Assembly (NCBI GenBank): GCA_029211065.1
Contig: JARGFK010000039.1
Location: 1 to 37,523, forward strand
Length of the DNA stretch: 37,523 nt
Source of the DNA: Desulfobacterales bacterium
GTDB taxonomy: Bacteria > Desulfobacterota > Desulfobacteria > Desulfobacterales > JARGFK01
Direction: 5' to 3'
The notes beneath the pieces are model-generated. The model had not been told where the DNA came from, did no database searches, and worked only from the letters and a program-made list of their open reading frames with translations. Shown here one piece after another: positions 2,426 through 24,669 of the stretch. Both the position numbers and the translations under genes were made by a program. Within the stretch, counting starts at the first letter, position 1. The number at the start of each line of letters is the position of its first letter.

Positions 2426-3835
2426 CTAACATCTTTCAAGGCAATCCTTGGATAACAGTTCGTAAAATTCTACCGGATAACAGCCGTCAAAGCAAGCTTT
2501 ACAGAAGTTATATTCCGGATCTTCAACGCCGGTTGCCTGGAGAAGCCCGGGAAGGCTTAGATAATAGAGCGAATCCAGACCCAGAAAATCACGCAGTTCC
2601 TCAACCGACATGCGGGCGGCAATCAACTCTCCTTTCGTGGAAAAATCGATTCCGTAGTGACAGGGAAATCGGTGTGGGGGGCCGCTGACGCGCATATGGA
2701 CCCGTCCGATCCCCAGTTCACGCAAGGCTTTGACGCGTGTTTTGGCGGTGGTCCCCCGGATGATGGAGTCTTCAATGATGATGATGTCTTTACCTTTCAA
2801 CAATTCCTTAACCGGATTCAATTTGATGCGGACGCTGAAGTCCCGCATGCTCTGGGTCGGCTGGATAAACGTGCGCCCGACGTAATGATTTCGGATCATG
2901 CCCATTTCAAACGGAATCCCGGAAGCCTCGGAGTAACCGAGGGCGGCATATGTACCGGAGTCGGGAAACGGCATGACCAGGTCGGCCGATACCGGGGCTT
3001 CTTTGGCGAGCTGGCGACCGTGCTCTTTTCGGGTCAGGTAGACATTTTTGCCGAAAATGGTGCTGTCCGGGCGGGCAAAATAGATGTATTCAAAGATACA
3101 AAACGTTTTGCGGGAAGGGGTTTGCGGCCGGATGCTTTTTACGCCGTCTTTACCGATGATAACGATTTCGCCGGGATCGATTTCCCGCACGAATTCGGCC
3201 TGTACCAGGTCCAGGGCACAGGATTCCGAGGCCAGCACATAATGACCGTTCAGTTTTCCCAGGCACAGCGGCCTGAAAACGTGGGGATCCTTAATTCCGA
3301 TAACTTCGCCGTTGCTGGTCAGAACGACAAATGAGAAGGCGCCTTTTAATTTTGCGACACTCTCAACAACAGCCTGTTCAAACCCGAATTTTAAATTTTT
3401 GACAAAAAGGTGCAGAAAAATCTCGCTGTCCATGGTGGTCTGAAAGATGGAACCGGAGCTTTCCAGCTCATCTTTCAATGTGGGCGCATTGACTATATTG
3501 CCGTTATGGGCCACGGCGTATGACCGCTGACTGTGGTGCACCACAAACGGCTGGGCATTAAAAAGGAGCGAGCTTCCGGTGGTGGAATAGCGAACATGGC
3601 CGATGGCGCTCCCGCCTTTAAGTTGCGCCAGGTGGGCATCGTCAAAAACCTCCGGCACCAGCCCCATCCCTTTATGTGATGTCATATGTTTGTCCCGGGC
3701 AACGGCAATGCCGGCACTTTCCTGCCCCCTGTGCTGCAGGGCGTACAACCCGAAATAAGTCAGCCTGGCGGCTTCGGGGTGATCATAGATGCCGAACAGG
3801 CCGCAGGCCTCGCGCGGCTTTTCTGAAGATATCAT
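2426..3835 (-). CDS. purF: Amidophosphoribosyltransferase (PurF)
   Basis: PurF catalyses the first step of de novo purine synthesis, making 5-phosphoribosylamine from PRPP and glutamine in the cytoplasm. The protein has 469 residues. A ten-residue propeptide precedes Cys11 ([11 protein letters not shown]), the N-terminal nucleophile exposed by processing. The class II glutaminase domain (about 11-240) has LQHRGQES and VAHNGNI. The PRPP-binding loop [17 protein letters not shown] marks the phosphoribosyltransferase domain. Cysteines at [15 protein letters not shown] and FCKAC match the four ligands of the [4Fe-4S] cluster in Bacillus-type PurF, so this is the oxygen-sensitive, propeptide-bearing type. 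Its ATG overlaps the carB stop by four bases (ATGA). That places a purine gene directly in the pyrimidine/arginine carAB operon. Confidence 0.97.
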
Positions 3836-6800
3836 TGGACGTGATACTCCTGTATGGGTTTAACCGAAAGGCGCTGTTCCTTTAAAGCTGAAATTCCCTT
3901 GCACATGGCCATGGCGCCGGCAATGGTGGTGGTATAGGGGATGTTGAACTGGACGGCCGCGCGCCGGATCAGATAACCGTCACGCCGGGGCGTGTCGCCA
4001 AGGCCGGTGTTGATAACAAACTGAATTTTTCCGTTTTTAATGGCATCGACAACATGCGGCCGGCCCAGAGAAACCTTGTTGATGACGCTGTTGGGAATTC
4101 CCTGTGATTCCAGAAACGCGTGGGTCCCGTCGGTTGCGATGATATCGAAACCCATTTGATGAAACTGGGCCGCCACCGGCAGGGCCGATTTTTTGTCCGC
4201 TTCTTTGACGCTGATAAAAACCGTTCCGCTCAGGGGCAGATTCTGGCCGGCGCCGAGCTGGGCCTTGGCGTAGGCGGCCCCAAAGACCGTATCAATGCCC
4301 ATTACTTCTCCGGTCGATTTCATCTCCGGCCCCAGCAGGGTATCGACACCGGGAAAGCGGTTAAAGGGAAGCACCGCCTCCTTGACCGAAACATGGGCGG
4401 GGATGATTTCCTTGGTGAGGCCGAGCTGCCGGAGACTGCGGCCGAGCATGACCTTGGTTGCCAGCTTTGCAAAGGGCACGCCGGTTGCCTTGCTGACAAA
4501 GGGAATGGTTCGGGATGCCCGCGGATTAACCTCCAGGACGAACAGCCGGTTTCCTTTAATGGCGTATTGAACGTTCATGAGCCCCACCACTTGGAGTTCT
4601 GCCGCCATGGCTTTGGTAGCGGCAGCAATGGCAGCGAGCATCTCTTTGCCGATGCTGTATGGCGGGAGCACGCAGGCGGAATCTCCGGAATGGACACCGG
4701 CAGCTTCGATATGTTCCATGATTCCGGCGATGATGGTGGTGGTTCCATCCGAGATGGCATCAACGTCCACTTCCAGCGCGTCTTCAAGAAATTTGTCGAT
4801 CAGGACCGGGTGTTCCGGCGACGCCAGGATGGCCAGCCGGGTAAAATTTTCCAGCTCCTTGGGTTGGTAAACGATTTTCATGGCCCGGCCGCCCAGGACA
4901 TAGGAAGGCCGGACGATCACCGGGTAGCCGATTTTCTCAGCGACAGTGCAGGCCCCCGCCACATTCAGGGCCGTGCCGTTGGCCGGTTGGACCAGGCCCA
5001 GTTTTTTCAACATGGCTTGGAAGTGTTCCCGGTCTTCGGCCCGGTCAATGCTTTCCGGCTGCGTGCCTAGAATCGGCACGCCCGCCCTATACAGGGGGAC
5101 GGACAGGTTCAGCGGGGTCTGGCCGCCGAATTGCACGATGACCCCCAGGGGCTTTTCCATCTCAACGATATGCAGGACGTCTTCTTTGGTCAGCGGTTCA
5201 AAATAAAGCTTGTCGGAGGTGTCATAATCCGTGCTGACCGTCTCCGGATTGCTGTTTACCATGATGCTTTCGACGCCCTCTTCACGCAGGGCAAAGGAAG
5301 CGTGCACGCAGCAGTAGTCAAACTCGATGCCCTGGCCGATGCGGTTGGGACCGCCGCCCAGGATGATCACTTTTTTCTTGTGGGAAAGCCGGGCTTCGTT
5401 TTCAGTTTCATAGGTTGAGTAGTAATACGGCGTGGCCGCCCTAAATTCTGCGGCGCAGGTGTCCACCAGTTTGTAGGTGGGCGCTATGTTCTGCTCCCGG
5501 CGGAGTTTTTTGATGCTGTCTTCGGTCACCCCTTTAAGATACGCCAGTTGAATATCTGAAAAACCGAAAGTTTTGGCCTTTCTCAGGAGGGGCGTCGGCA
5601 GATCGCCGGTGGCTGCGGCGATTTGTTTTTCCAGTTCCAAGATCTGCTGAAGTTGATGGAGAAACCAGGGGTCGATGTGCGTCAGTTGATGGATCGATTC
5701 AATCGTCATTCCCTTCAACAGGGCGTAGCGCAGGAAAAAAATCCGCTGGGAGTTGGGGGTCGCCAGCTTTTGTTCGATCTCCGGAAGGGTCAGGCCGTTC
5801 TCGCCCGGCTGAGACAGGTCAACTTCCGGGGTAAGATCCTTTCCATCGCCGCCAAAACCAAATCGGCCGATTTCAAGGGAACGCAGCCCTTTTTGCATGG
5901 CCTCTTTAAAGGTCCGGCCGATGGCCATGGTTTCCCCCACGGATTTCATGGCGGTTGTCAGATAGTCTTTGGTTTCCGGGAATTTTTCAAAAGTCCAGCG
6001 CGGAATTTTGACGACGCAGTAATCGAGGGTCGGTTCAAAAGAAGCCAGGGTTTCACCGGTGATGTCATTGGGGATTTCATCCAGGGTATAGCCCACCGCC
6101 AGCTTGGCCGCGATTTTGGCAATGGGAAAACCGGTGGCCTTGGATGCCAGGGCGGAGCTGCGGGACACCCGGGGGTTCATTTCAATAACAATCATTTCCC
6201 CATTTTTAGGGTTGACGGCGAACTGTACATTGGATCCGCCGGTATCAACCCCGATTTCGCGCATAATGGCAATGGTGGCATCGCGCATGGCCTGGTATTC
6301 ACGGTCGCTGAGGGTCTGGGCCGGGGCCACGGTAATGCTGTCGCCGGTGTGAACCCCCATGGGGTCCATATTTTCAATGGAGCAGATGATGACCACGTTG
6401 TCATTGTGGTCCCGCATCACTTCCAGCTCATATTCTTTCCAGCCGATAACCGACTCCTCCAGCATGACCTGGTTGATGAGGCTGGCGTCCAGGCCGGACT
6501 TGGCGATTTCGAGCAATTCTTCGGGATTATAGGCGATCCCGCCGCCGGTGCCGCCCAGGGTGAAGCTCGGTCGTACGATGAGGGGGTAGCCGATCTCATC
6601 GGCAGCCGCCGGCGCGGCGTTCAGGTCCGTGACGATAACGCTGTGGGGAACCCGCAGACCGATTCTTGCCATGGCTGCGCGAAAAAGATCCCGGTCCTCG
6701 GCTTTCTGGATGGCGTCAAGGGAGGCACCGATCATTTCAACCCCGTATTTATCGAGAACCCCCATTTTTGCCACCTTCACGGCCGTGTTGAGACCGGTTT

Positions 6801-7077
6801 GGCCGCCCAGGGTGGGCAGCAGCGCGTCCGGCCGCTCCTTTTCGATAATCATGGCAACGGATTCGGGGGTTACGGGTTCGATATAGGTTCGATCCGCCAT
6901 TTCCGGGTCGGTCATGATGGTGGCGGGATTGCTGTTGAGCAGCACGACCTTGAAGCCTTCTTCGCGCAGGGCTTTACACGCCTGGGTGCCGGAATAGTCA
7001 AATTCGCAGGCTTGGCCGATGATGATGGGGCCGGCGCCGATGATCAGGATCTTATGTAAATCGGAACGTTTAGGCAT
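3832..7077 (-). CDS. carB: Carbamoyl-phosphate synthase large subunit (CarB)
   Basis: CarB makes carbamoyl phosphate from bicarbonate, ATP and ammonia channelled from CarA, feeding pyrimidine and arginine synthesis. At 1081 residues it has the normal length. The two homologous halves are both visible: the first begins [21 protein letters not shown] with an ATP-grasp domain around 128-400, and the second begins [21 protein letters not shown] with an ATP-grasp domain around 680-930. The C-terminal MGS-like allosteric domain (about 940-1070) contains [15 protein letters not shown] and [20 protein letters not shown]. The start codon lies inside the 3' end of carA (8-base overlap) and the stop overlaps the purF start by 4 bases. 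This indicates tight translational coupling in a carA-carB-purF operon. No frameshift or missing motif was seen. Confidence 0.98.
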
Positions 7078-8209
7078 TTTTATCCATCATTTTAGCAAAA
7101 TCATCAAACAGGTATTTGGCGTCATTGGGTCCGGGAGAAGCTTCCGGGTGGTATTGCACGGTGAAAATCGGAAGCGTGCGATGCCGGAATCCCTCCAGGG
7201 TGTTGTCATTCAGATTGATATGGGTGATCTCGATATCTTTTTCCGGAAGGCTGTTTTGATCAACGGCAAAACCATGGTTTTGAGAGGTTATCTCAACGCG
7301 GCCGGTGAGAAGGTTTTTGACCGGCTGGTTGGCGCCGCGATGCCCGAATTTTAGTTTATAAGTTGTGCCGCCCAGGGCAAGCCCCAGCAATTGAATCCCC
7401 AGACAGATGCCGAAAAGGGGGCGATAATCCAACAGGGCCTTAATGGTGTCGATGGCATAACCAATCGGTTCCGGGTCGCCGGGACCGTTTGACAGGAAGA
7501 TGCCGTCCGGCGCCATGGCCCTGATCGCCTCCGGGCCGGTGGCGGCCGGTACCACCACAATTTCACAGCCGACGGATTCCAGGGAGCGTAAAATGTTATA
7601 CTTGACGCCAAAATCAAATGCGGCCACCGCGTACTTTGCCTTGCGCCGGCGCCAGATGTTTTTGTCGAGGGGGGGTTGGGCGGTAATCGCAACGGGTTTT
7701 CCGTCCTCCCAATAGTAAGGCCCGGGGGTGGTCACCACGCTGGCGAGATCCTGCCCCGCCATTGCCGGGATTCTTTTGGCCCTGAGAACAAGGGATTCAG
7801 GATCCAGGTCCTGGGTTGATATAACCGCCCGCATGGCCCCTGCGGTACGAATATGCCGCGTCAAGGCCCGGGTGTCGAACGCTTCGACGCCCAGGATTTT
7901 CTGGGCGGCCAGGTAATCGGCCAGGGAAGCGGTCGCTCTGAAATTGCTGTAAAACGGCTGGTATTCCCGGACCAGAAAAGCGGATACCTGTATCCGGTCG
8001 GATTCAACATCTTCCGGGTTTACACCGTAATTGCCCACCAGGGGATAGGTCATGGTGACCATCTGTCCCCGGTAGGATGGGTCGGTGAGCACTTCCTGGT
8101 ATCCGGACATGCCGGTGTTGAATACGACCTCTCCGGAAGCCTCCCCGGGTCCGGTAAAGGACCGGCAGGGATAGGTGCGTCCATCTTCAAGGGCGAGTAG
8201 TGCATCCAT
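7070..8209 (-). CDS. carA: Carbamoyl-phosphate synthase small subunit (CarA)
   Basis: CarA is the glutamine amidotransferase subunit that supplies ammonia to CarB. I place the start at the ATG at 8207-8209 ([10 protein letters not shown]), giving 379 residues, the usual size. It has a GGAG about 11 bases upstream and fits the conserved N-terminus; a GTG at 8245 in the same frame has no ribosome-binding site. The class I glutaminase motif [11 protein letters not shown] holds the nucleophile at residue 269, the same number as in E. coli CarA. The His/Glu of the triad appear in [11 protein letters not shown] near the C-terminus. The residue after CLG is Ile rather than the common His, which the family tolerates. 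It is the first gene of the operon. The 270 bp upstream is filled with a degenerate inverted repeat, and no promoter was recognised there. Confidence 0.97.
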
Positions 8210-8261
8210 TGTTTTTAAAGCTCCAGGGCCGAAGAGACCAGTCACATTCTAAGCCTGTTGG

Positions 8262-8478: not shown

Positions 8479-10788
8479 TTAAAGGATTGACCTTAAGTCC
8501 ATATCTTCAAACTCTTCCTGCCAGTCCGTTCCGTATTCTTCGGAGGCCGTCGATTCCATTGCCAGAACATCCAGCTTGACGGCTTGTACTTTACGATAAA
8601 CGTCGCTATATTGCCGAATTTTGCCGGCGACTGTCAACAGATCATTTTGGATTGAAATGCCGAACAGTTTTTCATTTTCCTCTAAATAAGGCAGAATCAG
8701 GTTCCAGTCGGCGGGGGTTAAATTGACAATTTCGCCGCCGTTTAACTGGTTGTCCACCACCTTTCGATGGGGATCGCGGATATAAATAGCGCCCCCCGAA
8801 GCCAGTGAAAAAAGGTTGGATCCGGGATAGGGGGCTTGCTGCTCCCGCAGGGCGCCGTCTTCACTAAACTCCATGCCGTTTAAGATCACAAATCCGCCGC
8901 CTTTGAGGGGATCGCCGGCCATGAAGGATTCGGCCAGATAATCGAGGCAGGTACCGTTGATGACCACCCGCGGGCGGCCGACCGCATTGATCAGGGGGCG
9001 GCCGGCGGCATTTCCCATCACAAAAACCGTGCCGCCCTTGGCGCCGTACATGAACGTCTGGCCCACGTCGCCATAAACAACCAGTCGGCCGCTTTTCATG
9101 ATCTGCCCCAGCTGGTCCTGGCCGTTGCCATGAACCATTATTTGGGGTCCGTCGATTCCGGAAGCCAGGTAATCCCCGGAGCTGTCATAGACATCCATGC
9201 GGACGTCGTCTGCTTTTTCCCCCAGGCCGCAGCCGCAGAAGCGCTGCCCCCTGTAACCGTAAAGGATAAATTGTCGCCAGCCCAGCCCGTAAGCCGCACA
9301 AATCAGCCGGGAGTCGCATTCTTCCCCCTCCGGCGGGAATTTAGCTGCGTCAAGGACCAGGATTTTTTCAACTCCGCGAGGTGCGCGCAAGGTGTTGCGG
9401 GTCTTCCAGTCAATATGCCGATAGCTGCCCGCGCCGGTATCCTTCAGCGGGGGTGATGCATTGAAAATGGCGGTCAGGCTGTCCCGCAGGATTCGCAGAA
9501 CCGAGCTGCGTTTCAGGTTGCCGGTGGGGTATCGTCTGTCGTTGAGGAATGTGAGGGCGGCGATGGCTTTCGCTTTGTTTTCGTCGCTGATTTCGGCCTG
9601 TTTTTCCAGTTCCCGGCAGAAATATGTCAGCGTGTTAAAATCCCAGCCGGACAGCTGCCTGCTGCAATTCTGTATAAAAGCGGACAGGTCCGGGGCCGCA
9701 AAGCCGGCTTTAACCGAACCGGAGATTTCTTCGGCTTTATCGGGTGCGGAAATTTGGGGGGTATATTTATAAAACAGTTGGTCCTGCAGGGTCTCCACCG
9801 CTTCGCCGAATTTGTTGGTGCAGGTGAGCTTTTTAGAGCCGTCGCCCTTACCGGCATCTGCCACCGTGAACAAAAAGGCCCCGCCGTCTGCGGCACTGCC
9901 GCCCCGGGCGTTCCAGTATTTATCGGCAATGGGGCTGAAACGGGGGTCTTCCGCCGCCAGGTTTTGCAGGGTGGCATCGATGGCCTGCTTTTCGGAACAG
10001 ATCAGGCCGATCTGCACGCCGTCTCCTTCCTGCAAGGCAAACACCTGGGGCCTCAGCATGGCCGTATCGGTAATGCCGATGAGCTGAAAAAAGTTCTCAT
10101 AGGGATTGTTGCGGGCGATAATGAATAACCAGGGACCGTCAGGCGATCCATGGACGTGGTGGGACTGGATCTGCCGATAGACCTGCTGCCTGTCCGCCGG
10201 GAGCAGGTCAAAATCATGCTCGCTGGTGGGGGTCATGGCTTCAATGATGTATTCGATGGGGTATTCAAAGGTCCGGTTCAACAGGTCCAGCAGCAGGACC
10301 GACACTTCGGTGTCGGTGAGAAACTGGGGGAAAATATTATTTTGCTTCAGATATTCCGCAACCGCATGGTAGTTTGCAAAATCGCCGTTGTGGACCAGGG
10401 CTTCGTCCATTCCGATAAACGGATGGGCGCCGCCGGGATGCCAGACGCGTCCTTTGGTGGGATAGCGCTGGTGCGCAATCCAGCCGTGCGCTTTAAAATC
10501 TTCTAAAAGATAATACTGCGCCACCTGTTCGGCATAACCGACAATTTTAAGAATCATGATGTTGCGGCCGTGCGAAAGGACAAACGCTTTTTGGTCCCCC
10601 AGCGAGGCATAAAACTTCTGATTCAGCTTAAAGGAGTTCTGGTAGATGAATTCATCCTCAGCCTTGCGCGGGTCCATATCCGCCAGACCGTTTTCAGCGA
10701 TAAAGCGGTCCAGCACATCTTTTTTTACCCTGACAAAATAGCGCCAGACATCGGGGGGCTTGACCTCCAGTCCGTCAATGTCACGGTA
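8479..10788 (-). pseudogene. Glutamate-synthase-like protein: class II amidotransferase plus GXGXG domain, 5'-truncated
   Basis: The frame stays open for about 768 codons up to a TGA at 10789-10791 and matches a fused glutaminase/GXGXG glutamate synthase alpha-subunit-like protein. The amidotransferase part has WIAHQRYPTKG, HPFIGMDEALVHNGDFANY and TDTEV. The GXGXG beta-helix domain (about residues 500-670) has VHGNGQDQLGQIMKSG, VYGDVGQTFMYGAKGG and MGNAAGRPLINAVG. The N-terminal catalytic Cys and the first part of the glutaminase domain are absent. Codons upstream of the first internal start (10716, a GTG) still read like family sequence (DVWRYFVRVKKD), so that start is an artefact of truncation. 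At about 10788 the sequence switches directly into a 5'-truncated glutamine synthetase on the other strand. Without the nucleophile, glutaminase activity is not expected. The central FMN synthase domain of classical GltB is not part of this protein. Confidence 0.85.
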
Positions 10789-11387
10789 TCAGTATCTGGA
10801 AAAAGAACAAGCCGCTGTTTGCGGGCAACAAGTATGCCGGTATGTCCCAGGAAGCGCTCTATGGCATCGGCGGCATCCTGAAGCACTGCCGCGCCCTGTG
10901 CGCTTTTACCAATCCCACCACCAATTCCTACAAGCGATTGGTTCCCGGGTTTGAGGCGCCGGTGAATCTGGCCTATTCCGGCCGCAACCGTAGCGCTGCG
11001 GTCCGGCTGCCCATGTATTCCACCTCGCCCAAGGCAAAGCGGATCGAGTTCAGAACACCGGATCCTTCCTGCAACGGCTATATCGCATTTTCGGCTATAT
11101 TAATGGCGGTGCTGGATGGGATTGAAAATAAAATAGACCCGGGCGACTCTCTGGATAAGGACATCTACAATCTGCCGCCGGAGGAACTGGCACAGATCCC
11201 GTCTGCCCCCGGATCGCTGGAAGAGTCCCTAGCGGCCCTCAAAGATGACTGTGCATTTCTCAAAAAGGGGGATGTCTTTACCCAGGATGTGATCGATATG
11301 TGGATTGAATACAAAACTGAAAAAGAAATCAATGATGTCAAGCTTCGGCCGCATCCCCATGAATTTTTCCTCTATTACGATATATAA
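10787..11387 (+). pseudogene. glnA: Glutamine synthetase type I, C-terminal fragment
   Basis: From about 10791 the plus strand reads [17 protein letters not shown] and then [31 protein letters not shown] and [13 protein letters not shown]-like motifs. These are unmistakable for the C-terminal 200 residues of GS-I (E. coli GlnA is 469 residues). The conserved adenylylation-site region is present as [11 protein letters not shown]. Everything before the HxHxS segment is missing, including the N-terminal beta-grasp domain and the catalytic-site histidines near residue 270. No start codon precedes the homologous region; the first Met (10842) lies inside it. The frame ends normally at 11387, followed by a strong hairpin. 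The fragment abuts the truncated gltB-like gene head to head, so both seem to have been cut by the same event. Confidence 0.9.
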
Positions 11388-11407
11388 ATCACCTATCTGC
11401 CAATAGC

Positions 11408-11438
11408 AGGCAGCCCGTATCCAATATACGGGCTGCCT
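11408..11438 (+). terminator. Hairpin downstream of the glnA fragment
   Basis: A perfect 13-bp stem (AGGCAGCCCGTAT / ATACGGGCTGCCT) with a 5-nt loop begins 20 bases after the glnA stop. No T-tract follows, so it may be a processed 3' end or a weak terminator. Confidence 0.6.
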
Positions 11439-11952
11439 ATGACATTTGTGTGAAAAAATTCAAATTCCAACAAAGCAAATATACTCTGGGTAAACCAGGC
11501 CGGCCTCCATATGATCGTATATTTACCATTTGCATTAAATCCAAAAACACAGTAAATAATAATAATACTGATTACTGAAAGTGGTCATAACGCCCGTTGA
11601 GAAAATTTCCTTTGTTTTGTAGACAATCCAGTAGTTATAGCGATTGCCAAAAATACATTCCGATTCAGCCGCCGGATAATTCCGTTTCAATCGGCAAAAA
11701 CTCGCAAATAAAAGCGCGTAACAATTGAACCCGGCGAGGATATCAAGGCCATTTAAAGCGTATCAATTTTTGAATAAATTTAGACAAATGGATAATGTTC
11801 AATTGAACGCGCTCTAATTTGCTCAGACAGTTTGCCGACTAAAACAGAACCATCCGGCGGCTGGCGTAGCAGATATATGGAGATCATTCAACTGGAACAT
11901 ATTTGTGACAACAACTATAAATCCAGATGGCACATTTGACGGAGCCTTTATC
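11439..11952. other. Intergenic region with one small inverted-repeat element
   Basis: No gene is seen in these 514 bases. Apart from the element at 11713-11813 the region is AT-rich and has stops in all frames. It precedes the redox cluster and should contain that cluster's promoter, but no convincing -35/-10 pair was recognised. Confidence 0.5.
11713..11813. repeat. 101-bp element with terminal inverted repeats
   Basis: The left end AGCGCGTAACAATTGAAC (11713-11730) is matched by the right end GTTCAATTGAACGCGCT (11797-11813) as an inverted repeat with one small mismatch or indel. The right end also contains a perfect palindrome, GTTCAATTGAAC. The size and structure suit a small non-autonomous mobile element or a long RNA hairpin. 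Only one copy was seen. Confidence 0.5.
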
Positions 11953-12969
11953 TTGAAAAAGAGTTATCAGCCCACTCTCCTTGAAACCGGTCTGAGTCTG
12001 CTGGTGGTGGCCGCTCTCATCGGGATCGGTGCGGCTATTTATCGTACCCAATCTGATTTTAACCCGGCTGTCAGCGTCGGCCGGATGGCGCCTGGGAATA
12101 TTCTACTGCCAGTTGCAAGCGGCGGTACCCCCGCCGGGACAGGGTGGAGTGGGCTTTTACCGGCCATGGCGACACTTACGCCGCCGGAGGTTTTTGTGGC
12201 GGCCAATTTGTCCGATAAAATTAATGGAAAAGCGGATCTCTACCTGACGGCAGGGTTTCGTCAGCTCATGAGCCAGCGGTTTAAAATGGCCGGCGACGAA
12301 AATAACTGGCTGGAAATTTTTGTCTATGACATGGGCGGCTTGCAGAACGCGTTTTCAGTTTTCAGCCAGCAGCGCCGGGAAGATGCCGTTGCGGCTGGAT
12401 TCGGGCGATTTTCCTACCGAACGGAAAATGCCCTGTTCTTTTTACACGGCCCTTTTTATGTGGAAATCATCGGGTCCGGGGCAACGGAGTCGCTGTTAGA
12501 GCAGATGCGCATCTTTTCGCAGAATTTTATCCAAAGCACTCCGGTAAGCGCCGGGAAGCTGGAAGAGCTGGAACTGTTTCCGGCGGAAAACATGGAGCCC
12601 AACAGCCTGGTCCTGATTGCAGACGGCGGGTTCGGTTACGACCGCTTTAATCAAATTTTTACAGCCGGCTACAGTGACGGCGACCTCCGCATGACGGCCT
12701 TTCTTTCCCGGCGCAGCAGCCAGACGGAAGCGCAGCAGCTGGTCCAGGGGTATCACGATTTTTTAATCACATATGGCGGCAGGGTCGTAACAACAGCGCT
12801 GCCCCTAAAAGATATTCAGGTGGTGGATATCCTGGGAAATTATGAACTCTTTTTTGCCCGGGGGCACTATCTGGCGGGGGTGCATGAAGCTGCGGACAAA
12901 GAACAGGCCGAACAATTGGCGCTTTTATTGGACAAAAAGCTGAGGGAGGGGACCGGTGACCCCAAGTAA
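11953..12969 (+). CDS. DUF6599-type membrane-anchored protein
   Basis: I start this gene at a TTG (11953) preceded by GGAG eight bases upstream, giving 338 residues; a GTG at 11905 in frame is possible but lacks a Shine-Dalgarno. One hydrophobic helix near the N-terminus (LLETGLSLLVVAALIGIGAAIY) anchors or exports a mostly soluble domain. That domain has internal features such as FVAANLSDKINGKADLYL, EIFVYDMGGLQNAFSVFSQQRREDA and LGNYELFFARGHYLAGV. The pattern resembles DUF6599 proteins, of unknown function, often found beside DUF362 and ferredoxin-like genes. The 3' end overlaps the next gene by 14 bases, indicating translational coupling. No cofactor-binding motif is visible. The family assignment comes from memory of the pattern and is moderately sure. 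Confidence 0.75.
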   Translation: MKKSYQPTLLETGLSLLVVAALIGIGAAIYRTQSDFNPAVSVGRMAPGNILLPVASGGTPAGTGWSGLLPAMATLTPPEVFVAANLSDKINGKADLYLTAGFRQLMSQRFKMAGDENNWLEIFVYDMGGLQNAFSVFSQQRREDAVAAGFGRFSYRTENALFFLHGPFYVEIIGSGATESLLEQMRIFSQNFIQSTPVSAGKLEELELFPAENMEPNSLVLIADGGFGYDRFNQIFTAGYSDGDLRMTAFLSRRSSQTEAQQLVQGYHDFLITYGGRVVTTALPLKDIQVVDILGNYELFFARGHYLAGVHEAADKEQAEQLALLLDKKLREGTGDPK

Positions 12970-13954
12970 CGAACCAGACAAGCTGCTTGACCGGCGACGG
13001 TTTCTGATACGATCGGCCAAGGCAGGTGTGTCGGTAGCAGCAGCCTGTTCGGCCGGATATCTGTTTTATGACCGCGGCGGCGCTATCGAGCCGCAGGAAC
13101 CGGAACCGGTCCGGCTGCCGGACTTTGCCGTACCGACAATGAAAGGCCGGATGAGCGTTGCCCAGGGGCCGGACCGGGTGAAGTCCCTCCGGGCGGCATT
13201 AAACAACCTGGGGGGCATGGCCGCGTTTATCAAAAAAGGAGACCGGGTACTGCTCAAGGTGAATGCCGCCTTTGCTTCACCGCCGGCGCTGTCGGCCACA
13301 ACTCATCCGCAACTGATTAGCGAGACGGTGCGCCTGTGTTTTGCGGCCGGCGCGTCAACGGTTGCGGTAACGGACAACCCCATCAACGATCCCATGAGCT
13401 GCTTTCGTCTGACCGGCATTGAACAGGCCGTCCATGAAGCCGGGGCGGAGCTGTTCCTGCCCCGGGAACCGTATTTCAGGCCGACGACCCTCACCGGCGG
13501 CAAGCTCATTAAAGCCTGGCCGCTGCTGTATGAACCCTTTAAAGGGGTCACCAAGCTGATCGGGATGGCGCCGGTCAAGGATCACCACCGCAGCGGGGCA
13601 TCCCTGGGCATGAAGAACTGGTATGGTCTTCTGGGGGGGCGCCGTAATATTTTTCATCAGGATATTCACACCATTATCCAGGAGCTGGCGCTGATGGTCA
13701 GCCCGACCCTGGTGATTCTGGACGGCACCATCAGCATGATGACCAACGGCCCCACGGGCGGGTCCCTTTCGGATCTCAGGCGGACGGACACCATGATTGT
13801 CAGCACCGACCAGGTGGCCGCCGATGCGTTTGCAGCCAAACTGCTCAACAAGACCGCCGCCGACCTGCCGTTTATTGCCAGGGCTGCGGCAGCGGGGGCG
13901 GGAACGGTCGATTATGAGAGTCTGAGGCCGGTAATAATTCAGGCTGAAGGCTGA
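12956..13954 (+). CDS. DUF362 domain protein with Tat signal
   Basis: This 332-residue protein starts at a GTG overlapping the previous gene, with GGGAGGGG upstream. Residues 12-17 (DRRRFL), followed by a hydrophobic stretch ending near residue 38, form a twin-arginine signal, so it is predicted to be exported folded. The rest matches DUF362: KGDRVLLKVNAAFA, VAVTDNPINDP, KDHHRSGASLGMKNWYGLLGG and VILDGTISMMTNGPTGG. DUF362 proteins are widespread in anaerobes, often as part of iron-sulphur proteins, but no enzymatic role is firmly established. This one has no ferredoxin CxxCxxC motif of its own; the following membrane protein could provide the clusters. The stop runs into the short tandem repeats at 13936-13980. 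Confidence 0.88.
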   Translation: MTPSNEPDKLLDRRRFLIRSAKAGVSVAAACSAGYLFYDRGGAIEPQEPEPVRLPDFAVPTMKGRMSVAQGPDRVKSLRAALNNLGGMAAFIKKGDRVLLKVNAAFASPPALSATTHPQLISETVRLCFAAGASTVAVTDNPINDPMSCFRLTGIEQAVHEAGAELFLPREPYFRPTTLTGGKLIKAWPLLYEPFKGVTKLIGMAPVKDHHRSGASLGMKNWYGLLGGRRNIFHQDIHTIIQELALMVSPTLVILDGTISMMTNGPTGGSLSDLRRTDTMIVSTDQVAADAFAAKLLNKTAADLPFIARAAAAGAGTVDYESLRPVIIQAEG

Positions 13955-13980
13955 AGGCAAAAGGCTAAAGGCTAAAGGCA
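13936..13980 (+). repeat. Short tandem repeat GGCTGAA / GGCTAAA
   Basis: Five to six imperfect 7-8 bp units (GGCTGAAGGCTGAAGGCAAAAGG and similar) begin within the last codons of the DUF362 gene. A related but more degenerate run lies at 16467-16505. Confidence 0.7.
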
Positions 13981-14049
13981 AACAAACAGGTTGAGGCTGA
14001 GGTTGAGAAAAGGCTAAATTATGAATTTTGAATGATAAATTTTAATTTT

Positions 14050-14232
14050 TCTCTCACAGAGTCCACAGCGGCACAAAGTTTTTAATCAGAATCTTTGAGA
14101 AGGGAAGATTTTGATTAACCGCCAACGCGTTGCGTTTATTCCATGCCGAAGGCTGATGGGTTTGCCTGATTTTTCCATCTCAAGAAATCGGGCAAAGATT
14201 AATTTCAACCATCTGTGTCCTCTGTGAGCTTT
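14050..14232. repeat. Intergenic inverted repeat with CTCTCACAGAG ends, copy A
   Basis: The left end CTCTCACAGAGTCCACAG (from about 14051) is mirrored by CATCTGTGTCCTCTGTGAGCT at the right (about 14212-14231). Inside lies TTGAGAAGG(G)AAGATTTTGAT. A related copy lies at 25683-25848. It is followed directly by the 137-bp MITE-like element. Confidence 0.6.
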
Positions 14233-14282
14233 AGCGATCCCGCTTCTGCGGGAGAGCGGGCGAGTGGTTTATTATTTAAATT

Positions 14283-14419
14283 TTGATGAACTCGTAAAAA
14301 GTACTCCAATTGTCATGCCGGACTTGATCCGGCATCCAGAACCGTCTGAAATTCTTGGATTCCCGCCTTCGCGGGAATGACGAAAGAGGCGCATTTTCGA
14401 CTTTTTACAAGATCATCAA
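14283..14419. mobile_element. MITE-like 137-bp element, copy A
   Basis: The ends TTGATGAACTCGTAAAAAGT and ACTTTTTACAAGATCATCAA form 20-bp terminal inverted repeats with 18 matches. Inside are two perfect hairpins: ATGCCGGA...TCCGGCAT and ATTCCCGC...GCGGGAAT. Copy B at 25870-26006 is the same at all 137 positions. There is no coding capacity, so a transposase elsewhere would have to move it. The copy is flanked by TT on both sides. Confidence 0.85.
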
Positions 14420-14452
14420 TTTTGGTGTTTGAAATTTGGGATTTAAAAGGAC

Positions 14453-16411
14453 ATGCGAATCGTAACCGCCAGACGCATCAGCCAGATTTTCTTTTTAGTC
14501 GTTTTTTTGTGGTTTTGCGAGGTGGCCACTCTCGGCGAGGCCCCGTGGCAGCTGCGCGGCTGGCCGGTCAACCTGTTTCTATATTTGGATCCCCTTGCCG
14601 GGTTGGGCATGCTCCTGACGACCCATACGCTGTATGCCGGTCTGTTGTGGGGGGTGGTTACCGTGGTCTTGACGATCCTGTTGGGGCGGTTTTTCTGCGG
14701 CTGGCTGTGCCCCTTTGGGACGATTCATCAGTTTGTCGGGTTTGTGGGGAAGGGTAAAAAAAAGATTGCTGCAAAAATCGATTTAAATCGCTACCATCGC
14801 GGCCAGAGCGTCAAATACGGATTGTTGATATTTATCCTGACGGCTGCCATGGCCGATCTGGCCCGCTATCTGGTAAGTCTGCCCCAGGGAGAACCCCGGA
14901 TTTTCTGGCTGATATTTCTCATTTCTCTTGCGGCTGTCGCCGTTTTCGCGGCTTTAAAAATGGACATCCGCCCCAAAAGAACGGTTCTGTTGCTGGTCAT
15001 CATTTTCGGGAGCTGGTTGTTTATCGGTTCGGCCCTGCGGGGGGACCGACTGCTGGCCGCTTCACTGCAGTCCGGTCTGCTGGACCCTATTTCGCTGCTC
15101 TATCGCTCGGTAAATCTGGTTTTGCTGCCGCTTCTGGACGGAACGGTTTTTACGCTTTCAGCCAGTACTCGCTATTATCAGGGGGCATGGCTGCTCGGGG
15201 TTATTTTTCTGGCGGCGGTGCTTTTGAATCTGAAAAAACCCCGCTTCTATTGTCGCTATGTCTGCCCGCTGGGCGCTCTTTTCGGCGTTCTGGGCCGGTT
15301 TGCCCTGTGGCGCATCGGAAAAAGTGAGAATTCCTGCGGCCGTAGCTGCCATGTGTGTGAAACAAACTGTGAAGGGGCCTGCGCGCCGTCGCAACAAATT
15401 CGGATCAGCGAGTGCGTCCTTTGCTGCAACTGCCTGACGGACTGCTTTAAACAGGAGATTGGGTTTCGCACGGCACCGTCCGCATCCGGTGAGATTCTCA
15501 CACCGGATGTGTCGCGGCGGGCTTTTCTGGTTTCGGCCCTGTCCGGCGCTGCCGCCATCCCCATGATTCGACTGAGCGGCCAGGTCGCCGGTCCCAACTG
15601 GACCGCGGAACTTGTCCGGCCGCCGGGAGCACTGGATGAACAGGCGTTTCTTGACCGGTGTATCAAGTGCGGCCAGTGCATGCGGCTCTGTCCCACCAAT
15701 GTGATTCATCCGGCCGCCCTTGAGGGCGGCCTGGAAGGATTGTGGACGCCGATATTGAATTTTCGGGTCGGTACCAGCGGCTGCCAGCTCAACTGCATTG
15801 CCTGCGGCCATATCTGTCCCACCGGCGCTATTCGACCGATCACGTTGGATGAACGACTGGGGCGGAACCGGTTTGCCGAAAAGGGACCCATTAAAATCGG
15901 AACGGCTTTTATTGACCGGGGGCGCTGTCTGCCCTGGGCCATGGACAGGCCCTGCATCGTTTGTCAGGAGAACTGTCCGGTCAGCCCCAAGGCGATCACC
16001 ACCCGGAACCATTTCAGCCCGGTCGAGGGTCTTGGGGATCTGGCGGTTCAGGCCGCTGATATGGGGCAGATAACGATTGCCGGCGGCCGCCTTGAACCGG
16101 GTCGATATACATCCGGGGATTTTTACTGCCGCATACGCGGCTGGCCGGAAGCACCGCCGCGCGCGATTATTGAAAATGCCGAATCCAGCCTGACGCTTTC
16201 TTCCCGGCAGCCCGGGTCGGCATTACCGCCGTCCGGCAGCCGGATTGAAGTCGTGGTCCGCCTGCAACAGCCGTACGTGAATCCTCGGCACTGCATCGGG
16301 TGCGGGATATGCGAGCATGAGTGCCCTGTCAGGGGGAAGCGGGCCATCCGGGTAACCGCCGACAATGAAACCCGGACAAAAGAACATGCCTTGACACTGT
16401 CGCCGGCATAA
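14453..16411 (+). CDS. NapH/NapG-like fused membrane 4Fe-4S protein
   Basis: This 652-residue protein joins two modules. The N-terminal module (about 1-345) is a NapH/NosR-like membrane protein with several transmembrane helices, the motifs CGWLCPFG and CRYVCPLGALFG at helix ends, and a cysteine-rich segment (CGRSCHVCETNCEGAC, CVLCCNCLTDC). The C-terminal module (about 355-640) is NapG/MauM-like with ferredoxin motifs CIKCGQCMRLCP, CIACGHICP, CIVCQENCP and CIGCGICEHECP. A Tat-like motif SRRAFLVSALSG sits at the junction, as expected if a once separate Tat-exported NapG-type protein became fused. It probably moves electrons between the quinone pool or a cytoplasmic donor and exported partners. 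The neighbouring DUF362 protein and aldo/keto reductase, both with Tat signals, are candidates. The start ATG follows AAAGGAC. Confidence 0.9.
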   Translation: MRIVTARRISQIFFLVVFLWFCEVATLGEAPWQLRGWPVNLFLYLDPLAGLGMLLTTHTLYAGLLWGVVTVVLTILLGRFFCGWLCPFGTIHQFVGFVGKGKKKIAAKIDLNRYHRGQSVKYGLLIFILTAAMADLARYLVSLPQGEPRIFWLIFLISLAAVAVFAALKMDIRPKRTVLLLVIIFGSWLFIGSALRGDRLLAASLQSGLLDPISLLYRSVNLVLLPLLDGTVFTLSASTRYYQGAWLLGVIFLAAVLLNLKKPRFYCRYVCPLGALFGVLGRFALWRIGKSENSCGRSCHVCETNCEGACAPSQQIRISECVLCCNCLTDCFKQEIGFRTAPSASGEILTPDVSRRAFLVSALSGAAAIPMIRLSGQVAGPNWTAELVRPPGALDEQAFLDRCIKCGQCMRLCPTNVIHPAALEGGLEGLWTPILNFRVGTSGCQLNCIACGHICPTGAIRPITLDERLGRNRFAEKGPIKIGTAFIDRGRCLPWAMDRPCIVCQENCPVSPKAITTRNHFSPVEGLGDLAVQAADMGQITIAGGRLEPGRYTSGDFYCRIRGWPEAPPRAIIENAESSLTLSSRQPGSALPPSGSRIEVVVRLQQPYVNPRHCIGCGICEHECPVRGKRAIRVTADNETRTKEHALTLSPA

Positions 16412-16700
16412 AAAAGCTTGATATCGGAAAAGGAGGACTTATTTTCTACAAGTTTAAAAATAAACGGTTCAAGGTTCAAGGTTTAGGGCTGAAGGCAAAG
16501 GGTACAAGGAAAAGTTCCAAATACCAAATCGCAAATATCAAACAATGACCAATAATCAATGACCAAAATTAAAAAAATCGATTTTGTTTGGAATTTGGAG
16601 CTTGAGCTTTGGGATTTGTTTGTAATTTGATGCTTGGGTTTTGAGATTTAAGCCTTCAGCCTATACATTTTAAACTCAAGAAACTTAAGGAATCCTGTAT
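16412..16700. repeat. Low-complexity intergenic repeat between the membrane Fe-S protein and the aldo/keto reductase
   Basis: After a strong Shine-Dalgarno-like AAAGGAGGACT (16429-16439) with no usable start codon behind it, the stretch contains GGTTCAAGG and GGGCTGAAGGC units. It then holds an imperfect inverted repeat of AAATACCAAATCGCAAAT-type units (about 16505-16560) against GGAATTTGGAGC...TTGAGATTT (about 16590-16650). No gene was seen. Confidence 0.6.
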
Positions 16701-17918
16701 ATGACGATTGCAGAAAAAAAGTGGACCCGCCGGAATTTTTTAAAAACAGCCGGTGCTGCCGGGGTTGGGTCGGTTCTGACATCCCTGGGAGAAAAGCCCG
16801 GGGCACTGGCGGCAGAAGACATGAAACAGTCTACCGTGCCCCAGCGTCCTTTTGGCAAAAGCGGGATAAACGTTTCCATCCTTTCCCTCGGCGGGATGTT
16901 TAACACCTCATCAAATCAGCTCTTGCTGAAACAGGCCGTTAATTGGGGGGTGACTTACTGGGACACGGCCGACTGCTATGGGTGGAGCGGAAGCGAAAAA
17001 GGAATCGGCAAATACTTCAGCCGCTTTCCGGAAGACCGGCAGAAAATCTTTCTGGTAACCAAGTCCGATGACCGCGACCCGGAGGGGATGTCCCGGCTGC
17101 TGGCGCGTTCCCTGGAGCGCATGAATACCGACTTTGTGGACCTCTACTTTATCCACGGCATTTCCGGCATCGATGAACTGAACAACCGGACCCGGGCCTG
17201 GGCGGAAAAGGCCAAGGCAGACGGAAAAATCCGACTGTTTGGTTTCAGCACCCACGGCAACATGGAAGAATGCCTGCTGGATGCGGCTAAACTGGGCTGG
17301 ATCGACGGCATCATGATGACCTACAATTACCGCCTGATGCATTCCCCGGAAATGAAGCGGGCTGTGGACAGCTGTATAAATGCCGGCATCGGTCTGACGG
17401 CCATGAAGACGCAAGGGGGCGGTTCGGTCTATACAAGTTCGGAAGCCGAGTTGAAACTGGCCGGCCGGTTTGTGCAAAAGGGATTTACCGACGCCCAGGC
17501 CAAGCTCATGGCGGTTTGGGAAAACCGGCAAATCTCCAGCATCTGTTCGCAAATGCCGAACCTGGCGCTTCTGTCGGCCAACACGGCCGCAGCGCTGAAC
17601 CGAACGTCACTTTCCGCCAGCGACCGGAAGTTCTTGCGGCAGCATGCGAATGCGACCGCTTCGGCCTATTGCACCGGGTGTTCAAAGATTTGCGAAACGG
17701 CTTTGGGGGGCCGGGCGCCTGTGGGCGATGTCATGCGCTACCTGATGTACAGCCGCAGCTATGGAGACCGGGATTACGCTGCCGGTCGGTTTAATGAAAT
17801 TCCACAGAAAACCCGGAAAAAAATGCCGGGCCTCGATTATTCTCTGGCAGAAGCACGCTGTCCCCGTAAAGTTCCCATTGGAAAGCTGATGAGGGAGGCG
17901 ACTGAAGAATTCGCCTGA
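16701..17918 (+). CDS. Tat-exported aldo/keto reductase
   Basis: The 405-residue protein begins with a twin-arginine signal (W8-T-R-R-N-F-L-K, then AGAAGVGSVL) and continues with a complete aldo/keto reductase barrel. The catalytic tetrad is recognisable: Asp and Tyr in WDTADCYGW, Lys in FLVTKSDD and His in YFIHGIS. After the barrel, a C-terminal region of about 90 residues holds YCTGCSKICE and a late ARCPRK cysteine, which could form a small metal or Fe-S site. Similar Tat-AKR-cysteine proteins occur in anaerobes, with unknown substrates. Most AKRs use NADPH, which is absent from the periplasm, so an exported form must bind its cofactor before export or use another donor. It lies downstream of the membrane Fe-S protein on the same strand. 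Confidence 0.88.
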   Translation: MTIAEKKWTRRNFLKTAGAAGVGSVLTSLGEKPGALAAEDMKQSTVPQRPFGKSGINVSILSLGGMFNTSSNQLLLKQAVNWGVTYWDTADCYGWSGSEKGIGKYFSRFPEDRQKIFLVTKSDDRDPEGMSRLLARSLERMNTDFVDLYFIHGISGIDELNNRTRAWAEKAKADGKIRLFGFSTHGNMEECLLDAAKLGWIDGIMMTYNYRLMHSPEMKRAVDSCINAGIGLTAMKTQGGGSVYTSSEAELKLAGRFVQKGFTDAQAKLMAVWENRQISSICSQMPNLALLSANTAAALNRTSLSASDRKFLRQHANATASAYCTGCSKICETALGGRAPVGDVMRYLMYSRSYGDRDYAAGRFNEIPQKTRKKMPGLDYSLAEARCPRKVPIGKLMREATEEFA

Positions 17919-17970
17919 ACATATGTGTCCGCCTTCTATAAAAAAAACTTAAATGGCGAGGAAAGAAGCG

Positions 17971-18492
17971 ATGAGTACCAAACTGGATTTTCGCGTGTTA
18001 AGTGATTTGAGTTATGGATTGTATATCGTTACCTCCAAGGATGAGGACCGTCTGAATGGCCAGATCATTAATACCGCCATCCAGGTGACGGCTGAACCGC
18101 CGCGGGTTGCGGTGATCATCAACAAAAAGAATCTAACCCATGAATTTATCCTGAAGAGCGGCGTATTCGCCGTATCGGTTCTGGATAAATCGGCGCCGTT
18201 AAAATTTTTCGGGCCCTTCGGGTTCCGCTCCGGTCGCGAAATCGACAAGCTGGACGGCATTCACTTTAAAAAGGGAATCACCGGATGTCCGCTCCTGATT
18301 GAACATTGTCTCTCGGTTATGGAGGCCAAAGTCTATGATAAAATTGATCTGGGGACCCATACGATTTTCGTGGGTGATGTTTTAACAACAGAAATGTTAA
18401 AGCAGGGAACCCCTCTTACGTATCATTTCTACCGGGAAGAATTGAAGGGAAAATCATCTAAAAATGCGCCGACTTTCGCTCCCGTGAAATAA
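17971..18492 (+). CDS. Flavin reductase domain protein (Hrb/FlRd-like)
   Basis: I start at the ATG at 17971 (MSTKLDFRVL), with GAGGAAAG just upstream, giving 173 residues; an ATG at 17953 is in frame but lacks a good site. The sequence matches the FMN-binding flavin reductase-like split-barrel found in high-molecular-weight rubredoxin (Hrb) and NADH:rubredoxin systems. Key segments are LSYGLYIVTSKDEDRLNGQIINTAIQVT, PPRVAVIINKKNLTHEFI and GVFAVSVLDKSAPLKFFGPFGFRSGREIDK. The rubredoxin domain fused to Hrb in other species is instead encoded separately 111 bp downstream. It likely passes electrons from NAD(P)H to that rubredoxin and on to the rubrerythrin, forming a peroxide-reducing chain in the cytoplasm. 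Confidence 0.9.
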   Translation: MSTKLDFRVLSDLSYGLYIVTSKDEDRLNGQIINTAIQVTAEPPRVAVIINKKNLTHEFILKSGVFAVSVLDKSAPLKFFGPFGFRSGREIDKLDGIHFKKGITGCPLLIEHCLSVMEAKVYDKIDLGTHTIFVGDVLTTEMLKQGTPLTYHFYREELKGKSSKNAPTFAPVK

Positions 18493-18603
18493 TAATTATT
18501 AACCTGAACCTCAGCCTCAACCTGTGATGCTTCTCAATTAAAACAGCCAGGTGGTGCGAAACGAGGATGAGTTAAATTGTCTTGATTGCAAATGGAGGTG
18601 ATT

Positions 18604-18813
18604 ATGGCAAAACCCGAAGAGATGTATCAATGCCAGACGGTCAATTGCGGGTGTATTTACGATCCGGACCGCGGGGACCGCAGAGGCAAAATTGCCAAAG
18701 GGACCCGTTTTGAAGAAACCCCTGAAACCTGGTGTTGTCCGGTTTGCGGGGCCGGCAAAAAGTGCTTCAGGCCGCTTGCAGGGCCGGGGTCCACTTTGGA
18801 AGAAAGCAAATAA
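18604..18813 (+). CDS. Rubredoxin with CX4C first knuckle
   Basis: Start at the ATG at 18604, with an excellent GGAGGTGATT in front, giving 69 residues. The fold signature YDPDRGDRRGKIAKGTRFEETPETWCCPVCGAGKKCF is that of rubredoxin, whose single iron is held by four Cys. The first cysteine pair is spaced CQTVNC (four residues between) rather than CxxC. That spacing is known from the type 2 rubredoxin of Desulfovibrio desulfuricans and alters redox behaviour. The second pair is the normal CPVC, preceded by an extra Cys; a further Cys follows the NC in GCIYDP. It sits between the flavin reductase and the rubrerythrin, so it most likely shuttles electrons between them. Confidence 0.92.
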   Translation: MAKPEEMYQCQTVNCGCIYDPDRGDRRGKIAKGTRFEETPETWCCPVCGAGKKCFRPLAGPGSTLEESK

Positions 18814-18887
18814 AACCTGCAGCATTAATGTAAAAACCCGAACGTTAGGTTCAATTATTTAAACCAGCAACCGAAAGGAGAAAATTA

Positions 18888-19382: not shown

Positions 19383-19411
19383 TTTAAGCAGCACTGTAAT
19401 CTAAAAAAAGC

Positions 19412-19442
19412 AAAAACCCCGTCCGGTGGCGGGGTTTTTTTG
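19412..19442 (+). terminator. Intrinsic terminator after rubrerythrin
   Basis: The stem AAAAACCCCG / CGGGGTTTTT with an 8-nt loop is followed by a run of T, starting 29 bases after the stop codon. The A-rich left side could also serve transcription on the opposite strand. Confidence 0.92.
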
Positions 19443-19649
19443 TTTGGCAACACCGGAAATTTTTACATGCCGGCACGCACCCTGACGATATCCCCTGATG
19501 CAAATATCGGTTAAATATTTGATTTTTCCGCAAAATCAGTGTATATTCAAACCCTTGATCTGTGAAAATGCAAAGCGTTCCCATCCTTTCAGACAACATG
19601 AGTCGGTAGAAGCAAAGATGGATCTTTTGGGCCTATAAGGGATAATAAG

Positions 19650-19736
19650 ATGAAGCAGATACTGGTAGTGGACAACGATCCTATCCTGTCGGAATTAATG
19701 AAGTATACCCGCGCGGCATTACGGAGGAACTGCTGA
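19650..19736 (+). pseudogene. N-terminal stub of a receiver domain, remnant of the hybrid kinase start
   Basis: The ATG at 19650, with AAGGGATAATAAG upstream, opens MKQILVVDNDPILSELMK, a textbook receiver-domain beginning with the acidic pair of the phosphorylation pocket. It then goes out of frame and stops at 19734-19736. In another frame the downstream sequence reads [21 protein letters not shown] and runs straight into the PAS domain of the kinase at 19757. Receiver-linker-PAS kinases with this linker are familiar in Desulfobacterota. I infer that about 115 codons of receiver were lost, with a frameshift at the joint (about 19700-19708). Confidence 0.75.
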
Positions 19737-19756
19737 TCGCCAACAGACATTTAGAA

Positions 19757-23145: not shown

Positions 23146-24669
23146 TTAGCGGTACTTACGGTAATCAACGCCGGAGCGCTGGGCCTTGTAGGAAAATTTT
23201 CGAACGGTTGTCTTCAGAACCTTTGCGGCCATGGATATATTCCCCCGGGTGTTTTTAAGGGCGTCGATAATCATTTCCTTTTCAAGGGTTGCCACGGCAT
23301 CTTCCAGGGAAACGGCCGGCAGGGTTCCGGACTCGGCGCCGGTCTGCAGGGTGGGGGGCAGATGGTAGCTGTGGATGACCTTGCCCTCGCACAGCAGGAT
23401 GGCGCGCTCAATGCAATTTTCAAGCTCCCGGACATTTCCCGGCCAGTGATAATCCATGAGCATGTCAATGGCCGGGGTGGAAAGCCGCACCACTTCCTTG
23501 CTGTTTTCCCGGGAGTATTTTTCAAGAAAATAGTCGGCCAGGAGCAGAATATCGGTCTTGCGCTCCCTTAGGGGCGGCAGATAAATCGGAAAGACATTGA
23601 GACGGTAATAGAGATCGCCCCGGAAGGTCTCGTCCTCCACGGCGTCTTCAAGGTTTTTGTTGGTGGCGGCAATGACGCGCACATCGGTTTTAATGGTCTT
23701 ATGCCCGCCGACCCGTTCAAACTCTTTTTCCTGCAAAACCCGTAGCAGGGATACCTGGACGTCCAGGCCGATGGACCCGATTTCATCCAGAAAAATGGAG
23801 CCTTTGTGAGCCATCTCGAACTTGCCCATCTTTTGCTTGATGGCGCCGGTAAAGGCGCCTTTTTCATGTCCGAAGAGTTCGCTTTCAATCAGATTGACAG
23901 GAAGGGCCGCACAGTTTACCTTCACCAGGGGGTTTTTGGCCCGAAGGCTGTTGTAATGAATGGAATTGGCTACCAGTTCCTTGCCGGTTCCGCTTTCCCC
24001 CCGGATCAGAACGGTGGCGGTGCTTTTAGAAACCTGTGAGATCATCTGAAAGACTTCCCGCATTTTATTGCTGTTGCCGATAATGTCGGTGATGCGGTAC
24101 TTGTTCTCAAGTTCCGTCCGCAGGCGCAGGTTTTCCTCCCGCAGCTGATCTTTTTCAAGGCGGATGGTTTCCAGATTGATCACCTGCCGGGCCACCATGG
24201 TGGCGATGACCGACAGCAGCTTCTCACCGTCGGCGAGGGCATAGGATGCGTCATAGGGCCGGTCGACGCTGAAAGCCCCGATGACCTGGTTCCCCTTTTT
24301 GATGGGGACGCAGAAGAACGACAGCTCCTGATCCTGCTTGGTTTTGCGGGAGGAGGTGCGGTTTAAAAAAAGCGGCTCCTTGCTGATTTTGGGGATGGTC
24401 ACGGCCTTGCCGGACTGGATCACCCGGCCGGTGATGCCATCGCCCAATTTATATTTTCCTTTTTCCATGGCGCCCTTGGTCAATCCATGGGCGACCTCGA
24501 TGTTGATTTCATCCCTCAGGGGATTTAATATGGTAACGGTCCCCCGCACCATATCCATGGAGTTGGACAGGATATTCAAAACCTTGTATAGGGATTTTTT
24601 TAAATCAAGGTTTTCATTCAGCGTCTTGCTGATTTCATAAAGCAGGGTGATTTCTTCGATTTGTTTCAT
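23146..24669 (-). CDS. Sigma-54-dependent activator with GAF domain (NifA-like)
   Basis: The 507-residue regulator has an N-terminal GAF domain (about 15-165). An AAA+ domain follows with Walker A GESGTGKE (224-231), the sigma-54-contacting loop GAFTGA (271-276), Walker B SIFLDEIG and the arginine-finger region [14 protein letters not shown] Fis-type helix-turn-helix at the C-terminus contains [22 protein letters not shown]. The architecture is that of NifA and related activators that open sigma-54 promoters of nitrogen-metabolism genes. The GAF ligand is unknown and no Cys-rich NifA linker is present. The gene is divergent from endonuclease IV. The 97-bp gap between them carries two TTACAA/TTGTAA palindromes that look like operators. 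No -24/-12 promoter was identified near its likely targets in this window. Confidence 0.93.

What the first reader, a model, noticed from the sequence alone, without database searches (positions are those of the whole stretch)
10700..10880. Truncated GOGAT-like and glutamine synthetase genes fused head to head
The minus strand reads family sequence of a gltB-like protein up to about 10788, and the plus strand reads glutamine synthetase from about 10791. Both lack their 5' ends and no sequence lies between them. The simplest explanation is one deletion of a divergent promoter region plus both N-termini (at least 800 bp of glnA alone). It would remove the GS active site and the amidotransferase nucleophile. 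Such loss of the GS/GOGAT pair would be severe unless second copies exist, so it is either a strain-specific event or an assembly fault.
Basis: partly seen in the sequence, partly recalled or inferred. Interest (0 to 1): 0.7.

Follow-up and report, generated by a model that had tools for sequence, protein, structure and literature searches.

The report
Collapsed nitrogen-assimilation gene cluster joint
Two ammonia-assimilation genes in an uncultured bacterium are cut off and butted head to head, most simply because a stretch like the 13-16 kb that lies between them in some relatives is missing, either by a recent deletion or by an assembly fault.

Summary
The joint is real in the sequence. The minus strand reads a GATase/GXGXG glutamate-synthase subunit up to 10788; the plus strand reads the C-terminal 199 residues of a type I glutamine synthetase from 10787/10788. 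About 126-130 and 272 N-terminal residues are missing.

In 65 of 66 relatives with enough flank, a ferredoxin/FMN glutamate-synthase gene lies directly 5' of the amidotransferase. In three relatives from two other families both genes stand in the window's orientation 13.2, 14.2 and 16.2 kb apart, with glutamate-synthase core genes, glnE, glnD, amtB and a PII gene between. The window is collinear with that layout minus the interval.

Both N-termini and both core genes were not found in the own genome, whose contigs under 3 kb are unreadable. An intact second glutamine synthetase and a glutamate dehydrogenase exist elsewhere. Neither remnant shows decay, so the event is recent or artefactual. 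I favour one interval deletion, real in the sampled DNA (0.6), over an assembly fault (0.3). Interest is low to moderate.

The parts
8479..10788 (-). 5'-truncated amidotransferase/GXGXG subunit of a split glutamate synthase (about 126-130 N-terminal residues missing)
10787..10788 (.). the joint; at most about 2 bases (TA) fit both genes
10788..11387 (+). 5'-truncated glnA (type I glutamine synthetase), last 199 codons plus stop
7070..8245 (-). carA, downstream neighbour of the amidotransferase as in several relatives
3832..7077 (-). carB, same block
2426..3835 (-). purF, same block
23146..24669 (-). GAF/sigma-54/Fis regulator; convergent neighbour of glnA at 96-940 bp in 5 relatives, here 11.8 kb away

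Best explanation
The joint is what remains after one stretch was lost from a cluster laid out, left to right in the window's orientation: purF, carB, carA, amidotransferase, two glutamate-synthase core genes and an FlpD-like gene (minus), then glnE, glnD/amtB, PII gene and glnA (plus), then a sigma-54 regulator (minus). The ends were rejoined with about 2 bases in common, as illegitimate end joining would do. The loss is recent and I judge it more likely present in the sampled DNA than made by the assembler. Shown: the joint, collinearity of its flanks with three relatives, absence of both N-termini and both core genes from readable contigs, lack of decay. Inferred: that this genome's parent had the divergent layout, that glnE, glnD, amtB and PII were lost too, and that the deletion is biological. 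If real, the cells would assimilate ammonium with glutamate dehydrogenase plus the second glutamine synthetase.
For: Three relatives of two other families have both genes on one contig in the window's orientation, 13.2, 14.2 and 16.2 kb apart, with p517, p479, FlpD-like, glnE, glnD, amtB and PII genes between. The convergent sigma-54 regulator beyond glnA is kept (5 of 14 relatives with at least 600 bases of 3' flank). Own-genome searches found neither N-terminus nor the core genes p517 and p479. Conserved columns intact: 1 of 226 and 4 of 125 differ. Tetranucleotide make-up of the two sides differs less (0.141) than the mean pair of 25 own contigs (0.190), so both sides fit one genome. A second glutamine synthetase and a glutamate dehydrogenase make the loss survivable.
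Against: No read data. Contigs under 3 kb read N (30 of 30 fetched), so pieces could hide there, or be unbinned. glnE, glnD, amtB and PII were sought only in 0.64 Mb of readable own sequence, not in most of C1-C129. The divergent layout is rare: 3 of the 27 relatives with both halves listed (22 have them on different contigs, which says little on drafts; one is same-strand, one convergent), and those three are not the closest by the amidotransferase (60-70% against 78%). The regulator is 11.8 kb from glnA here, and absent from the held flank in 9 of 14. Intact remnants also fit an artefact.
Confidence: 0.6

Rival explanations
1. Assembly or amplification fault: the genome has the interval, but the assembler, or an in-cis amplification chimera, skipped it, and its own contigs were left unbinned or fell under 3 kb.
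For: No decay in either remnant. Draft of 269 contigs. Assemblers make local joins without support by even one read (PMC7111523, passages), and amplification chimeras can join fragments up to 10 kb apart (PMC3642703, passages citing Lasken and Stockwell). Contigs under 3 kb cannot be read here. A frameshift elsewhere in the contig hints at base errors.
Against: A skipped 13 kb of unique sequence should have assembled on its own, yet no readable contig holds the N-termini or core genes. No repeat at the joint would lead an assembler astray.
Confidence: 0.3
2. Chance chimera: two unlinked loci joined by an assembly or library accident.
For: In most relatives with both genes they lie on different contigs (22 of 27 listed), and none of 46 loci with at least 5 kb upstream had glnA facing away within the held flank (mostly under 10 kb).
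Against: A chance join would not be expected to pick two linked nitrogen genes in the orientation, and with the outer neighbours, seen in three relatives.
Confidence: 0.05
3. The truncated genes have a new role as they stand (for example a shortened GXGXG protein or an antisense pair).
For: Both remnants stay open and conserved.
Against: The missing parts hold the presumed catalytic cysteine and much of the glutamine synthetase active site (roles recalled), and neither gene keeps its own upstream region; lack of decay is equally expected if the event is recent.
Confidence: 0.03

Closest known systems
Divergent gln/glutamate-synthase cluster of G106 (L125), G064 (L124) and G055 (L123), same order
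   Same: Amidotransferase (then carA or purF where the flank is held) on one side and glnA on the other, in the same relative orientation; convergent sigma-54 regulator beyond glnA in G064 and G106 (G055 flank too short to tell).
   Different: There 13.2-16.2 kb with core glutamate-synthase genes, glnE, glnD, amtB and PII lie between; in the window nothing does.
Type I glutamine synthetase (TIGR00653/PF00120)
   Same: C-terminal 199 residues, about 81-87% identical to full-length relatives.
   Different: Lacks the N-terminal domain and the first 153 positions of the 344-position catalytic profile.
Split glutamate synthase with separate amidotransferase/GXGXG subunit (Desulfobacterales, ANME archaea and others)
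   Same: 759 residues alignable at up to 78% identity; carA, carB, purF downstream.
   Different: Lacks the N-terminal 126-130 residues and the partner core genes upstream.

Membership tests
Type I glutamine synthetase (functional member) | C-terminal catalytic profile | tested here: met
   PF00120 positions 154-343, E 3.6e-70
Type I glutamine synthetase (functional member) | N-terminal beta-grasp domain and first half of the catalytic domain | tested here: not met
   Absent at the joint; PF03951 in the own genome only on C15; N-terminal 272 residues not found
Glutamate synthase amidotransferase/GXGXG subunit (functional member) | GXGXG domain | tested here: met
   PF01493, E 2.3e-12
Glutamate synthase amidotransferase/GXGXG subunit (functional member) | N-terminal segment with the presumed nucleophile cysteine | tested here: not met
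   EEGGCGVTGF segment of 8 of 8 printed relatives is missing; N-terminal query finds only the overlap at the joint
Glutamate synthase amidotransferase/GXGXG subunit (functional member) | FMN/ferredoxin core partner gene in the genome | tested here: not met
   p517 and p479 not found in readable contigs; PF01645 gives two weak short matches
Genomic deletion (rather than assembly fault) | Flanks collinear with an intact relative | tested here: met
Genomic deletion (rather than assembly fault) | Missing interval absent from the rest of the genome | tested here: inconclusive
   Edge and core genes absent from readable contigs; contigs under 3 kb unreadable; glnE, glnD, amtB, PII sought in 0.64 Mb only
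Genomic deletion (rather than assembly fault) | Reads spanning the joint at flank coverage | not testable with these tools
   No reads are held

The most novel reading that the evidence does not exclude
A natural population has recently shed its whole ammonium-assimilation module (glutamate synthase, type I glutamine synthetase, PII and its uridylyl- and adenylyl-transferases, ammonium transporter) in one deletion of roughly 13-16 kb, and lives on glutamate dehydrogenase plus a second glutamine synthetase.
Probability: 0.35. Interest if true: 0.45.

Novelty: new member of a known kind. Interest (0 to 1): 0.27.

Why it matters
If real, it is a clean natural case of losing glutamate synthase, and probably the PII cascade, at one stroke, with the surviving route visible in the same genome. 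If artefactual, it warns that a draft rated 100% complete can lack a central nitrogen module and be read wrongly as an organism without glutamate synthase.

Tried and rejected
Chance chimera of unlinked loci was the first working idea, because within the held flanks (mostly under 10 kb) none of 46 loci showed glnA facing away from the amidotransferase. It was set aside when the wider survey showed three relatives with the head-to-head layout at 13-16 kb.

That contig C202 (MTHFR C-terminal protein, metF) is a piece of the missing interval: G055 and G064 do have metF and the MTHFR C-terminal gene in the interval, G106 has no match. C202's copies are 62% and 42-46% identical to the operon copies of L030/L031/L036, against 73-79% and 70-78% for the copies in G055 and G064, and in C202 metF is followed by an unrelated minus-strand gene. 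I read it as a separate locus, not proven. C177 carries an FlpD-like match near its end (34-39%); not followed.

That interval pieces sit on small contigs: C130-C221 were read in full and hold no match to glnE, glnD, amtB or PII and only weak FlpD-, FMN- or metF-like matches; C222-C251 read N; C252-C269 were not fetched.

No repeat at the joint. No match of 10300-11400 among phages. PF00310 proved a poor probe, since a full-length relative does not list it either. Paper searches (listings and starts of abstracts only) showed nothing on this cluster or its loss; two searches were for assembly faults and chimeras. PMC7111523 and PMC3642703 were seen as passages only.

Searches were added to name the interval genes in G055 and G064.

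Full report
What is there. The window is G000:C39, 37,523 bases, in a genome of 4,938,964 bases in 269 contigs, completeness 100, contamination 4.29. From 10788 down to 8479 the minus strand reads 769 residues of a protein with a GXGXG domain and a sub-threshold amidotransferase match. From 10788 the plus strand reads the last 199 residues of glutamine synthetase. Just past the joint the first frame meets TGA. Per-base comparison puts the two homologies end to end with at most about 2 shared bases.

What is missing. Full-length relatives of the first protein are about 885 residues, those of the second about 471. The window lacks about 126-130 and 272 residues at the N-termini, including the segments EEGGCGVTGF and, in glutamine synthetase, GPEAEFFIFD and GMHTH (catalytic roles recalled). 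The own-genome search with the amidotransferase N-terminal piece found only the overlap at the joint and two chance-level matches; the search with the glnA N-terminal piece found only the other glutamine synthetase on C15. PF03951 agrees. PF00310 also found nothing, but it is a poor probe for this subunit.

Normal layout on the left. A scan of named genomes gave 196 loci encoding a relative, of which the best 80 were kept. With seven more from the genome search, 87 loci were examined; an eighth, L018, was dropped as identical to L026. Eighty-three have a near-complete gene. In 65 of the 66 of these with at least 1.7 kb upstream, a ferredoxin/FMN glutamate-synthase gene (p517) lies directly upstream on the same strand (L095 is the exception); in 50 of 50 with at least 3.5 kb a second Glu_synthase-domain gene (p479) is there too. 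carA, carB or purF follow downstream in several relatives as in the window. Neither p517 nor p479 has a counterpart in the readable own genome beyond weak ferredoxin- or FMN-domain matches. One search had no positive control in its own run; the same gene is recognised in relatives locally.

Normal layout across the joint. In 146 genomes of the order, 122 match the 1101-base query; in the listing, which was cut, only the own genome matches it in one piece. Of the relatives listed there I count 33 with the amidotransferase half, 27 of them with the glnA half too; 5 of the 27 have both on one contig. G055, G064 and G106 have them in the window's relative orientation, with 16.2, 14.2 and 13.2 kb between the equivalent breakpoints; G003 has them on the same strand and G102 convergent. 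Between them lie, in all three, p517, p479 and an FlpD-like gene on the amidotransferase side and glnE, glnD, an ammonium transporter and a PII gene on the glnA side. These four were named with NCBIfam in G106 and G064; in G055 three were and PII rests on an 84% match. Beyond glnA a GAF/sigma-54/Fis regulator lies convergent within 96-940 bases in 5 of 14 relatives with at least 600 bases of 3' flank. The window has it at 23146-24669, convergent but 11.8 kb away. So both flanks of the joint keep the order and orientation seen in those relatives, and only the interval is gone. The three are not the closest relatives by the amidotransferase (60-70% identity against 78% for G036).

Age and consequence. 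The amidotransferase remnant differs at 1 of 226 columns conserved in 85 relatives (relatives left out one by one: median 1, maximum 7). The glutamine synthetase remnant differs at 4 of 125 columns conserved in only 10 relatives (median 2 and maximum 9, over 143-150 columns that include some before the joint). There is no sign of decay, so the event is young or artefactual. The genome keeps a complete second glutamine synthetase on C15, 82-83% identical to a copy that lies upstream of the glutamate-synthase genes in L030, L031 and L036, and a glutamate dehydrogenase on C160. Ammonium assimilation without glutamate synthase is therefore feasible (inference).

Real or artefact. Collinearity argues strongly against a chance join. 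Tetranucleotide make-up is alike on both sides (0.141 against a mean of 0.190 between 25 own contigs). Absence of the edge and core genes from readable contigs argues for loss from the sampled DNA, since a skipped interval should have assembled elsewhere. Published experience is that assemblers make local joins that not one read supports (PMC7111523, passages). I put a real deletion at 0.6, a fault at 0.3, a chance chimera at 0.05 and a new role for the remnants at 0.03.

Noticed in passing
window 32214-33170, + strand: An ORF of 189 residues is continued in another frame from about 32700 to about 33170, so a frameshift (sequencing error or real) lies there. It resembles an M29-type aminopeptidase by recall only; Pfam gave no match to the first part.
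   Followed up: partly
window 21639-23084, - strand: A spermidine-synthase-domain ORF is directly followed by a membrane-type ORF without a Pfam match; in the fused proteins I recall, the membrane part comes first.
   Followed up: partly
window 11388-23145: About 11.8 kb (DUF6599, DUF362, polyferredoxin, aldo-keto reductase, rubrerythrin-like and histidine-kinase ORFs among others) separates glnA from the sigma-54 regulator that lies next to it in 5 relatives; it may be an insertion or rearrangement.
   Followed up: partly
L106 8649-9986 (contig C15): The second glutamine synthetase is 82-83% identical to one that sits upstream of the glutamate-synthase genes in L030, L031 and L036, but here stands in other surroundings.
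   Followed up: partly
L124 11307-13652 and L125 10987-13959: Single open frames that match metF plus p479 (G064) and p479 plus p517 (G106): possible gene fusions within the glutamate-synthase operon, or read-through of the stop-to-stop frames.
   Followed up: no
contigs C222-C251 of the own genome: All 30 fetched contigs under 3 kb read N, so own-genome searches are blind to them.
   Followed up: no
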